NCBI GenBank assembly: GCA_035530615.1
Contig: DATKUL010000002.1
Location: 1 to 64,000, forward strand
Direction: 5' to 3'
Source of the DNA: Candidatus Paceibacterota bacterium
GTDB taxonomy: Bacteria > Actinomycetota > Actinomycetes > Nanopelagicales > Nanopelagicaceae
Length of the DNA stretch: 64,000 nt
In this document: positions 1 through 34,955 of the stretch, in pieces
How positions within the stretch are numbered: position 1 is the first letter of the stretch
Layout: every line of letters starts with the position of its first letter
Notes under the pieces: generated by a model
Databases searched by the model: none
The model's input: only the letters and a program-made list of their open reading frames with translations
Told to the model about the DNA's origin: nothing
Made by a program: the position numbers and the translations under genes

Positions 1-390
1 ACCTAGCGGCCCGACCGGTGCAGGTGCTACCGGTGCAACTGGGGCATCGGGTCCCTCGGGTCTGACCGGACCAACCGGCGCAACTGGACCCTCGGGTCCA
101 TCCGGACTTGAAGGACCTAGCGGCCCGACCGGTGCAGGTGCTACCGGTGCAACTGGCCCATCGGGTCCCTCGGGTCTGACCGGACCAACGGGTGCGACTG
201 GTGCAACGGGACCTTCTGGTCTTACTGGTGCTACCGGCGCAACGGGTGCAACGGGACCTTCTGGTCTTACTGGTGCTACCGGCGCAACGGGCGCAACTGG
301 AGCATCGGGCCCCTCTGGTCTGACCGGACCAACCGGTGCAACTGGAGCATCGGGCCCCTCTGGTCTGACCGGACCAACCGGTGCAACTGG
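1..390 (+). repeat. tandem DNA repeats coding Gly-X-Y triplets
   Basis: The stalk is built from copied DNA blocks, not only similar codons. A block beginning at position 1 recurs at 115, a period of 114 nt (38 codons). A 45-nt block (15 codons) beginning at 203 recurs at 248, and another 45-nt block beginning at 293 recurs at 338. All periods are multiples of 9, so the triplet phase is kept. Such blocks can expand or contract by slippage, making stalk length variable. Confidence 0.85.
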
Positions 391-925
391 ACCTTCTGGT
401 CCCACCGGTGCAGGTGCAACAGGAACAACGGGTGCTAGTGGACCATCTGGTCCATCTGGTTTGACAGGTCCATCTGGTCCATCTGGGCTTACTGGACCAA
501 GTGGCCCTACCGGTTCCCTCACCTCAGCTTCCAACTATCTCGGGGCGGATGTTACGTTGAGTGCGACTCCAAATACTCCAAGCATTACGGGGCCAACCTT
601 GACCCCGGCTGCAGGAACATATTTCGTGACAGGACATTTAACGATTCGGCCTTCGGCTACTGCCGCGCTGCTTGATACGACCGCAAATTTGATGTGCGGA
701 TCAACTATTATTTCAACTTCTGAGGTTGCAATACCGAAGGCTGGCGCGGGCACGTGGGACATTGCCACTATTTCTTTGGCTGGCATTTGCGTTATCGACG
801 CTGTCAATACTGTGATTCACATGGAAGCTTCCGCGACGACCGCAAGTGCCGTAATACTTACATCCCCGATCGCTGGAGGTGTTGCAAATAAGGCAAGCGG
901 AATTCAAATTGTGAAAATAGGGTAG
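2..925 (+). CDS. collagen-like repeat surface protein, 5' end outside window
   Basis: The reading frame is open from the first bases of the window, so only the C-terminal 307 residues are seen. Residues 1 to about 172 are uninterrupted Gly-X-Y triplets, almost all [12 protein letters not shown] or GAS, which is a bacterial collagen-like stalk. The last ~135 residues form a non-repetitive domain rich in small and beta-branched residues with two cysteines. In bacterial collagen-like proteins such a C-terminal domain is often a trimerising jelly-roll head; that role is inferred here. No LPXTG motif or membrane anchor is seen at the C-terminus. The protein probably sits on the cell surface, but the signal peptide is off the edge. 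A second collagen-like gene lies at 34197-34955 on the other strand. Confidence 0.85.
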
Positions 926-32791: not shown

Positions 32792-33499
32792 TCAGATGGT
32801 TCGACGTCGTCGCGCCCTGCGAAATTGGACGACAACATTGAGCGCAAGCAAGGAAATTCCGATCCCTATCTTTGCCGCAATCGAAGTGAGAATGATCGTC
32901 GCATCACCAAGTTTTGGAATAACACTCGTAATTTTGCGGACAGGAGTTGCGCTGTCGAGGACGTAAGAATCCGAACTCGCCGCGCCTGTCTCAGTCTCAC
33001 TAGCAATTGTGGTCAAATCGCCATCTATTGATGTCGAACTAAACGTGACCTGACGCACCTCAAAATCCCAAGAGAATTCATTGCGAAGAAGTAGTACATC
33101 CCCACGGTTCAATTCGGAAACAGGTAGTAACTTGGAAACCATCAGATCCCCTTGGTAAATTGAAGCCTGCGCACTGCTTGAACTTGAGGCGTAAACCGCA
33201 GTCCCAAAGTACGTTGAGAGCACAGTGGGAAATAAGGCGACGAGCGCGATAAATGCGATGAACGAGATATTGAAGATGTGTAACCAATCCAGTTGGTGCT
33301 CTCGTCCGTGATGCTTAATGGGCTCATGGGTCTTTTTAAAGAGTATGTTCTCGGTAGTAATATCCGCCGGCAGGGATCCTGACGTTACATCCGAGCGATC
33401 AATTATGACCGCGCCCTCAGGAAGGTAGATGACCATTGTCTGGCCCTTTTTGCCAACTTTCTGAGGGGCGTTCCTAGGCGTAGCACTTTCGTCAGACAT
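32792..33499 (-). CDS. signal peptidase I-like membrane protein
   Basis: A 235-residue protein with a soluble N-terminus (~75 residues, basic), a membrane helix at about 76-98, an outer domain, and a C-terminal membrane helix (about 200-222) with a basic RRARRRR tail. The segment SIYQGDLMVSKLLPVSELNRGDVLLL aligns with the box of SipW/archaeal-type signal peptidases (S-M-x-P-T-x-x-x-GDL and GDV) but the box is degenerate; a serine is nearby. Whether it is active is unclear. It follows a membrane protein and a collagen-like protein in one operon, so it may process or present that protein. Start ATG 33499 has GGAAAGGAGG. Confidence 0.55.
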   Translation of the reverse strand: MSDESATPRNAPQKVGKKGQTMVIYLPEGAVIIDRSDVTSGSLPADITTENILFKKTHEPIKHHGREHQLDWLHIFNISFIAFIALVALFPTVLSTYFGTAVYASSSSSAQASIYQGDLMVSKLLPVSELNRGDVLLLRNEFSWDFEVRQVTFSSTSIDGDLTTIASETETGAASSDSYVLDSATPVRKITSVIPKLGDATIILTSIAAKIGIGISLLALNVVVQFRRARRRRTI

Positions 33500-33541
33500 G
33501 CCGTGCTCCTCCTTTCCGGAGGTTATGCCAAGGGTAAATGA

Positions 33542-34177
33542 TTAGTTAATCAACTTAATCAACCCAGGTGTGGTTGCCAATTTAAGTGCAACACCAGGGG
33601 TTGGGTCGAAGATCTCGATTTGAAATGCCAAACCTTGAAAGGCCAAATAGACGTGCGTTGGAGTCGCCTTTGCGTAGTAGATCAGCGAACCATCAGGGTT
33701 GGTGATGCTAACGCCAGTATCCAGTTTTCCGGCGGTTTGCATTGTTTCAAAAGCATTGGCATCTTGATATGTAGCGATCACTCGATAGTTTTGTTTTACA
33801 TCATTCAGGCCTTCACCATTGGGCAGGTAACGCACTAATTCCTGGCCGTTAGCTATGTGATCAAGGGCGTACCGAGCACCCGGCATAGGACCGGCCCAAA
33901 ATATTGGTACTCCATGAGTCTTCACCGCCGAACGCAGTTCCGCCTCGGTAAGGGCAACTTGACCCGAAATTGTTGGATTCGCTGAAGCTTCGTTAGTTGG
34001 GACCCCATTAGTTATGGACTGACTCGATCCGTCCGGTTGAACAAAAGTGACCTTGACTTCCCTATTCGAAGTTATCGCCCAAGTTACGGTAAAAGTGACT
34101 ATTGCAATGACTATCCCGATACCCACACGTTTGAGCATTGAGTTTCTTCGATTTACGTCGGGAATATTGACTATCAC
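33542..34177 (-). CDS. membrane-anchored hypothetical protein
   Basis: A 211-residue protein with a single membrane helix (about residues 18-36) and an extracytoplasmic domain of about 170 residues after a Ser/Asn/Thr-rich linker. No cysteines and no motif that I recognise. It sits 19 nt downstream of the collagen-like gene and 42 nt upstream of the signal-peptidase-like gene in the same direction. A role in secretion, anchoring or assembly of the collagen-like protein is suggested only by this arrangement. Confidence 0.6.
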   Translation of the reverse strand: MIVNIPDVNRRNSMLKRVGIGIVIAIVTFTVTWAITSNREVKVTFVQPDGSSQSITNGVPTNEASANPTISGQVALTEAELRSAVKTHGVPIFWAGPMPGARYALDHIANGQELVRYLPNGEGLNDVKQNYRVIATYQDANAFETMQTAGKLDTGVSITNPDGSLIYYAKATPTHVYLAFQGLAFQIEIFDPTPGVALKLATTPGLIKLIN

Positions 34178-34196
34178 TATGCGCTAACTCCTATCC

Positions 34197-34955
34197 CTAA
34201 GACTTAATGATCATGTAGTAGGTGGTGCCCCCTTTGTCAGAACACACGCCCCATGCAACATCTCCTTTTGAGCCAACACATATCGGTACTGCTGTTCCCG
34301 CTGCACCGGCGGGGCCAGCGGGGCCCATCGCTCCAGCCGGTCCGACTGCACCAGTATCGCCCTTAGGACCAGCAGGTCCGACCGCACCGGTATCACCCTT
34401 ATCGCCTTTGTCACCCTTATCGCCTTTAGCCCCTTGCGGACCTGTGGGACCGACTGGACCTTGCATGCCTGTCTCACCTGTCTCACCAGTCGCACCTGTG
34501 GCTCCCGTTGCACCCGTCTCGCCTGTGGCCCCCGTCGCTCCGGTTGCGCCAGTAGCGCCCGTGTCACCCTTGGTCCCTTGCGGACCAGTCGGACCAATTG
34601 GTCCCTGCATTCCGATTGATCCAGCAGGACCGACGGGTCCCGTTGCACCAGTTTCACCTTTGAGTCCGCGCGGACCTGCTGGACCGACAGGTCCCTGCAT
34701 TCCACTAGACGCAACAGTGATTTCATTAGGTTGAACAGTCCCAGATGGTGTGAGTTGGAGCGGTCCGCGGAGCGAACCAATCGATCCGATCTTTGGCTGC
34801 TCGGTTTGAATCGCACTCGTACCGTCTGGCAACAGCGGTCCAAAAACTTGATCGGCCGCAAAAGCAGGAGTTGAAAAGGATGAGAAAAGAAAGACGCCAG
34901 CGAGCGAGCAGATTGCCACCGTATTTCTGCCTTTGCTGAGCCACTTCAGTTGCAT
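34197..34955 (-). CDS. secreted collagen-like protein
   Basis: A 252-residue protein with a signal peptide (about 1-33, cleavage after AFA), a ~50-residue spacer, a Gly-X-Y stalk from about residue 85 to 222, and a ~30-residue C-terminal cap with two cysteines ([17 protein letters not shown]). Triplets include GPQ, GPR, GDK, GDT, GET and GAT, with K-G-D/E pairs known to stabilise bacterial collagen helices. ATG 34955 is preceded by AAGGAG. First gene of a three-gene operon with two membrane proteins. Reverse-strand frames through the stalk are artefacts of the repeat. Confidence 0.88.

What the first reader, a model, noticed from the sequence alone, without database searches (positions are those of the whole stretch)
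32792..34955. Collagen-like protein operon with a degenerate signal-peptidase-like partner
The collagen-like protein is followed by a single-pass membrane protein and a two-helix protein with a GDL...GDV segment like SipW-type signal peptidases but an altered catalytic box. SipW processes matrix proteins in Bacillus, so a dedicated processing and assembly system for a collagen-like fibre is plausible. I know no described actinobacterial system of this kind.
Basis: partly seen in the sequence, partly recalled or inferred. Interest (0 to 1): 0.52.

Follow-up and report, generated by a model that had tools for sequence, protein, structure and literature searches.

The report
Dead signal peptidase in collagen operon
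In this freshwater actinobacterium a gene for a collagen-like surface protein is followed by two membrane-protein genes, one of them a signal-peptidase relative that has lost its cutting residues, and the three stay together in other species, which suggests that the non-cutting relative helps build or anchor the fibre and does not process it.

Summary
On the minus strand: collagen-like protein COLL (34197-34955), single-pass membrane protein "MID" (33542-34177), two-helix protein "SIP" (32792-33499). The trio, in this order, occurs in 9 genomes of two genera of the family. SIP has the SEC11/SipW (S26B) peptidase fold but is a pseudo-peptidase: 0 of 11 members keep the catalytic His or Asp, and only the window's own has a Ser in the Ser column, inside a poly-Ser run; 29 of 29 tabulated live relatives keep Ser-His-Asp. 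Dead members form one 100/100 group and are under purifying selection (dN/dS 0.28, membrane-plus-ectodomain part 0.20). In the window's genus dead SIP (7 of 21 genomes) and live SipW (12 of 21) never share a genome; in three genomes of another genus they do. MID, without a Pfam match over cut-off, sits beside collagen-like genes in 13 of 14 genomes of other genera and 3 of 3 in other families. A processing role is not supported; non-proteolytic assembly or anchoring, as for SipA of Streptococcus pyogenes, is the best reading, inferred and not shown.

The parts
34197..34955 (-). COLL: collagen-like protein, 252 aa, with N-terminal signal peptide (by eye AFA/A after residue 33)
   Evidence: ORF; PF01391 81.3 bits, cut-off 27.2
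34200..34295 (-). C-terminal segment of COLL after the Gly-X-Y tract, residues 221-252, with two Cys (pattern CV..G...WG.C...T.YY...K)
   Evidence: shared by the trio collagens
33542..34177 (-). MID: 211 aa, N-terminal membrane helix and a predicted extracellular domain
   Evidence: ORF, helix, model, family alignment A3
32792..33499 (-). SIP: 235 aa, pseudo-signal-peptidase of SipW/SEC11 type
   Evidence: ORF, alignment, fold
33395..33445 (-). conserved N-terminal motif of SIP, residues 19-35 (GQ..VIYLPEG.VI.DR), predicted cytoplasmic
   Evidence: invariant columns G19 Q20 I24 Y25 P27 G29 V31 I32 in A6
33173..33175 (-). SIP Ser109, in the column of the catalytic Ser (part of a poly-Ser run)
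33053..33055 (-). SIP Arg149, in the column of the catalytic His
32990..32992 (-). SIP Glu170, in the column of the catalytic Asp

Best explanation
The trio is a small surface-fibre operon. COLL is exported by Sec (its ordinary signal peptide can be removed by a LepB-type peptidase of the genome) and forms a collagen rod. MID is a membrane-anchored partner that holds or nucleates the collagen-like protein on the outer face of the membrane, perhaps by its C-terminal Cys-pair segment. SIP is a former SipW-type signal peptidase that keeps the fold and the two-helix topology, and probably the peptide groove, but no longer cuts; it works as a non-proteolytic scaffold or chaperone for COLL, MID or both. 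Shown by computation: conserved operon, loss of the active-site residues, one origin of the dead group, purifying selection, MID-collagen gene association; the shared fold is a prediction of middling confidence backed by sequence homology to live members. Inferred: triple helix, orientation in the membrane, groove binding, and the assembly or anchoring role.
For: Trio in the same order in 9 genomes. SIP model: best Foldseek match SEC11C 7p2q_A (E 8.3e-4), VIA Z 9.8, 135 residues, rmsd 4.3; a profile of 26 dead and live members hits SEC11A at 1.3e-15. Ser-His-Asp kept in 29 of 29 tabulated live relatives and in 0 of 11 dead ones. Dead members one group, support 100/100. dN/dS 0.28 whole, 0.20 for helices plus ectodomain (G272/G273), against 0.16 for the live copies of the same pair. 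MID beside a collagen-like gene in 13 of 14 genomes found in other genera of the family and in 3 of 3 genomes of two other families. Precedent: SipA of S. pyogenes is an SPase-fold protein without the dyad and essential for pilus polymerisation (PMC4049620: abstract, passages, part 1 of the discussion).
Against: No functional data. One dead SIP (G015, L031) stands apart, next to a SIMPL-domain gene. MID pairs with collagen-like genes without SIP in many genomes, so SIP is not needed wherever MID and collagen occur. MID also has copies with no collagen-like gene nearby. The SIP model is of middling confidence (mean pLDDT 68.6) and the MID model has no clear structural match (best Z 5.3). The most conserved part of SIP is a predicted cytoplasmic motif, which a purely extracellular scaffold does not explain. 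Unlike SipA there is no sortase gene in the operon.
Confidence: 0.5

Rival explanations
1. SIP is a regulator. Its extracellular pseudo-peptidase domain senses COLL, MID or a peptide, and the conserved cytoplasmic N-terminal motif passes the signal inside, so the operon tunes adhesion or fibre production.
For: The N-terminal motif before the first helix holds 8 of the 20 invariant columns of A6 and is 95% identical between G272 and G273 against 85% for the rest of the conserved part. SipW of Bacillus is reported to be bifunctional with a second role in surface-adhered biofilms (PMC4238804, passages; the original paper is not held).
Against: No known signalling domain in the N-terminus; the motif's resemblance to the soluble protein of the other collagen cluster is not significant (hhalign probability 3.5%); the lone SIP of G015 has only a weak form of the motif.
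Confidence: 0.22
2. SIP still cuts, with a changed active site (for the window protein Ser109 with another base).
For: The window protein has a Ser in the Ser column.
Against: His is Arg, Gly, Ile or Val and Asp is lost in 11 of 11; the Ser column is Ser, His, Ala, Leu, Ile, Val or Tyr and is among the most variable columns (rank 12 of 169). A conserved enzyme would not vary there.
Confidence: 0.07
3. SIP is a decoy or inhibitor of the live signal peptidases.
For: In three genomes of another genus dead SIP and a live SipW coexist; the genome of the window has LepB-type peptidases.
Against: In the window's genus 0 of 7 dead-SIP genomes have a live SipW, so there is no SipW to inhibit there.
Confidence: 0.08
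4. SIP is a decaying remnant of a SipW gene that happens to lie behind COLL and MID.
For: The active site is gone.
Against: Intact frames in all complete copies, dN/dS 0.15-0.37 in the five pairs measured (two of them saturated at synonymous sites), conserved order over two genera, one ancient origin.
Confidence: 0.03

Closest known systems
SipA of Streptococcus pyogenes, signal-peptidase-like protein of the FCT pilus operons (PMC4049620)
   Same: Signal-peptidase fold without the catalytic residues, encoded in the operon of a surface fibre; structure 4n31 is among the matches of the SIP model (VIA Z 7.5, 86 residues).
   Different: SipA is a relative of Ser-Lys type I peptidases and works with sortase-linked pilins; SIP belongs to the SipW/SEC11 (Ser-His) branch, goes with a collagen-like protein and MID, and has no sortase gene beside it.
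SipW with TapA and TasA of Bacillus (PMC4238804, passages), and SipW clusters of the same actinobacterial family (L038-L049, L129, L178-L180)
   Same: SIP is homologous to the SipW proteins of these clusters; in Bacillus the operon makes a matrix fibre.
   Different: SIP lacks His and Asp (and Ser in 10 of 11) and sits with a collagen-like protein and MID. The exported proteins next to the live SipW (alignment A8) are found in 0 of 7 dead-SIP genomes of the genus; calling them TasA-like is my inference from position, since no library profile matched them.
Bacterial collagen-like surface proteins (Scl1, Scl2, Lcl)
   Same: Gly-X-Y tract behind a signal peptide; partial matches to the NCBIfam models.
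   Different: Far below the cut-offs of those models; no LPXTG; short C-terminal Cys-pair segment.

Membership tests
SipW/S26B signal peptidase | S26/SEC11 fold of the ectodomain | tested here: met
   7p2q_A Foldseek E 8.3e-4, VIA Z 9.8 over 135 residues
SipW/S26B signal peptidase | two transmembrane helices around the ectodomain | tested here: met
   hydropathy maxima near 84 and 211; helices 72-98 and 207-234; orientation inferred
SipW/S26B signal peptidase | catalytic Ser in an SGSMxP-like box | tested here: not met
   box lost in 11 of 11; a Ser in the column only in the window protein
SipW/S26B signal peptidase | catalytic His (HRV/HRI box) | tested here: not met
   0 of 11
SipW/S26B signal peptidase | catalytic Asp (KGDAN-like box) | tested here: not met
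   0 of 11
SipW/S26B signal peptidase | score over the curated cut-off of TIGR02228 (51.85 bits) | tested here: not met
   13.4 bits for the window protein, no match at 0.1 for two other dead members; seven live relatives scanned score 57.6 to 77.8
SipA-like pseudo-peptidase of pili | signal-peptidase fold with catalytic residues lost | tested here: met
SipA-like pseudo-peptidase of pili | operon with sortase and sortase-linked pilins | tested here: not met
   no sortase in the trio; the one sortase found in the genome lies at C2:680875; COLL has no LPXTG
SipA-like pseudo-peptidase of pili | required for fibre assembly | not testable with these tools
   needs a mutant
bacterial collagen-like protein | Gly-X-Y repeats matching PF01391 | tested here: met
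   81.3 bits, cut-off 27.2
bacterial collagen-like protein | forms a triple helix | not testable with these tools
   inferred from the repeats only

The most novel reading that the evidence does not exclude
Freshwater actinobacteria recruited a SipW-type signal peptidase, lost its catalysis once, and kept it as a dedicated non-proteolytic assembly platform for a collagen-like fibre, together with MID, a collagen-partner membrane protein family without a Pfam model that recognises the collagen chain. This would be a second, independent invention of what SipA does for streptococcal pili, from the other branch of the signal peptidases.
Probability: 0.42. Interest if true: 0.72.

Novelty: new variant of a known kind. 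Interest (0 to 1): 0.58.

Why it matters
If true, a pseudo-enzyme made from the SipW/SEC11 branch of signal peptidases has been fixed as a partner of a collagen-like surface protein in abundant, streamlined lake and groundwater actinobacteria, whose surface fibres are hardly described. With SipA it would make 'dead signal peptidase as fibre-assembly factor' a recurrent solution. Independently, MID gives a marker for a class of collagen-like operons in several actinobacterial families and a testable candidate for how such chains are held at the cell surface.

Tried and rejected
Library scans: Pfam, NCBIfam and PHROGs give no match over cut-off for SIP or MID; single low-scoring hits such as ABC2_membrane_3 (MID, E 0.0022) were judged chance. 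The MID model gave no Foldseek match at E 0.001 or better and a best VIA Z of 5.3; this does not show a new fold. The N-terminal motif of SIP was compared with the soluble GQKLVIGK protein of the other collagen cluster: hhalign probability 3.5%, P 0.012 over 15 columns; left as a lead. A profile of the dead members alone found no signal peptidase in the PDB by sequence; only the mixed profile did.

Rejected: strict mutual exclusion of dead and live SipW as a general rule. It holds in the window's genus (7 dead, 12 live, 2 neither, of 21; chance of no overlap 3e-4 if genomes were independent, which they are not), but three of three trio genomes of genus g16 also have a live SipW.

Left out of counts: the residue table and tree do not hold every hit. 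From alignment A1 one of the G039 copies (L049:12300-12884), whose Ser and His boxes are kept but whose Asp box reads KGREN, and the distant hits of G050 and G033 were left out; the distant hits L015, L016, L020 and L021 were never put in. Of 47 genomes with a match only those with fetched loci were inspected for catalytic residues. Conserved order was judged on mechanical ORFs with guessed starts, and in G002, G013, G017 and G250 the collagen-like gene runs into a contig end. The named loci L144-L150 are the same contigs as G017, G018, G272, G250, G015, G013 and G002 (equal contig lengths) and add no genomes. One G186 MID has no collagen-like gene beside it; many MID copies in the window's genus sit elsewhere, often in pairs.

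Full report
What is there. Three genes lie head to tail on the minus strand: COLL (34197-34955), MID (33542-34177) and SIP (32792-33499), with gaps of 19 and 42 bp and a Shine-Dalgarno-like stretch before each start. COLL has a signal peptide, a Gly-X-Y tract (PF01391, E 4.2e-23) and a short C-terminal segment with two Cys. MID has one N-terminal helix and a domain of about 140 residues. SIP has a 70-residue N-terminus, a helix at 72-98, an all-beta domain and a helix at 207-234. Downstream lies a flavin-containing oxidoreductase gene, upstream an aldose-epimerase-like gene and a sugar ABC transporter by appearance.

Conservation of the trio. A search of 100 relatives with SIP and MID and reading of the loci shows COLL-MID-SIP in the same order in the window's genome and in G002, G013, G015, G017 and G018. 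A family-wide search of 296 genomes and reading adds G250, G272 and G273 of a second genus. That makes 9 genomes. Eleven dead SIP proteins were found: nine in the trio, one (G003) cut by a contig end, one (second copy of G015) apart from collagen, next to a SIMPL-domain gene.

SIP is a pseudo-signal-peptidase. Aligned with its relatives, 29 of 29 tabulated live members keep Ser, His and Asp; of 11 dead members none keeps His or Asp. In the Ser column they have His (3), Tyr (3), Ala, Leu, Ile, Val, and in the window protein Ser109 within SSSSS. The Ser column is the 12th most variable of 169, as expected if no catalysis is selected, whereas G117, D118, G133 and G198 stay. TIGR02228 scores 57.6 to 77.8 bits for seven live members, 13.4 for the window protein, with a cut-off of 51.85. 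The fold is nevertheless that of the peptidase: SEC11C is the best match by Foldseek (E 8.3e-4) and VIA-align (Z 9.8, 135 residues, rmsd 4.3; SipA 4n31 Z 7.5; elongation factor P and LexA entries, Z 8 to 9 on shorter stretches, follow closely). The model has mean pLDDT 68.6 from 8 sequences.

It is kept by selection. The dead members form one group with support 100/100 next to live SipW of the same genus (root by midpoint, so direction of loss rests on the universal conservation of the triad in live members). dN/dS for G272/G273 is 0.28 (helices plus ectodomain 0.20, linker 0.40), MID 0.15, live SipW of the same two genomes 0.16; wider pairs give 0.15 to 0.37 with synonymous sites partly saturated.

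Dead and live versions. In the window's genus the 21 genomes split into 7 with dead SIP, 7 with a live SipW beside exported proteins of alignment A8, 5 with a live SipW inside another collagen-like cluster, and 2 with neither. The A8 proteins occur in exactly the 7 genomes of the second class. No genome has both dead and live. In genus g16, however, G250, G272 and G273 have the trio and a live SipW elsewhere. So SIP is not simply a subunit or inhibitor of SipW. The genome of the window has two S26 proteins well over the cut-off and a third, short or broken one, enough for ordinary signal peptides.

MID is the constant partner of collagen-like genes. In other genera of the family 14 genomes had MID at E 1e-8; in 13 of them it lies next to a collagen-like gene (G045, G056, G116, G195, G247, G250, G272, G273, G282, G287, G294, G311, G313), G186 being the exception. 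Of 394 genomes drawn from the class three outside the family have MID: one (G644) has COLL then MID on one strand, and two (G394, G625) have MID next to a collagen-like gene on the other strand. In the window's genus there are further MID copies, mostly in pairs without collagen nearby. Several MID-linked collagen-like proteins outside the trio end in a similar Cys-pair segment (L182, L183, L184, L186, L083, L187, L199), others do not (L074, L076, L078, L185); I judged this by eye.

How it most likely works. Inference from the anatomy: COLL is secreted and trimerises; MID holds it at the membrane; SIP, with its groove but without the catalytic residues, acts as scaffold or chaperone in assembly or anchoring. 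The precedent is SipA of S. pyogenes: SPase fold, no dyad, peptide cleft conserved, and deletion abolishes pilus polymerisation, while its ligand is unknown (PMC4049620: abstract, passages and part 1 of the discussion). A regulatory role is the main rival because the N-terminal, probably cytoplasmic, motif is the most conserved part and SipW of Bacillus has a reported second role (PMC4238804, passages).

Known or new. The papers holding both 'collagen-like' and SipW (5) are Bacillus papers by their titles; in the one I searched the collagen-like proteins are named apart from SipW. I therefore file it as a new variant of a known kind.

Noticed in passing
L124:5271-11386, L125:1384-7477, L126, L127, L128 (G007, G008, G011, G012, G016): A second SipW-collagen association: a live SipW-type peptidase (Ser-His-Asp kept) in one cluster with a different collagen-like gene, a 520-aa multi-helix protein, a soluble protein with a GQKLVIGK..GTVI stretch and exported proteins, conserved in five species of the genus.
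   Followed up: partly
L074, L182, L183, L184, L186 (G045, G287, G282, G311, G195): COLL-MID followed by two further membrane-protein genes; the last has a helix weakly like MotB_plug (Pfam E 0.13, one member).
   Followed up: partly
L192:1107-1940 (G263): A SipW homologue that keeps Ser and His but has lost the KGDAN box; half-degenerate and not next to a collagen-like gene.
   Followed up: no
window 2-922: The contig starts inside another collagen-like ORF (307 codons); contig C1 also starts in one, so assemblies break in these repeats and collagen-like genes are undercounted.
   Followed up: no
L071:7684-9278 and the same place in L073, L075, L077, L079, L081, L084, L085: Two (in L081 three) MID paralogues at a conserved housekeeping location in eight genomes of the genus, without collagen-like genes nearby.
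   Followed up: partly
L138:5147-9181 and L139:5231-9002 (G015, G018): A flavin oxidoreductase and (named in L139) a radical-SAM-like gene like those beside the window's trio lie next to a different collagen-like gene, so this spot may be a recurrent site for such genes.
   Followed up: no
L143:4067-5047 (G000:C2:954066-955046): An ORF with Gly-X-Y-like repeats whose end looks like a LuxR-type DNA-binding region by eye; a weak MID homologue lies beside it on the other strand.
   Followed up: no
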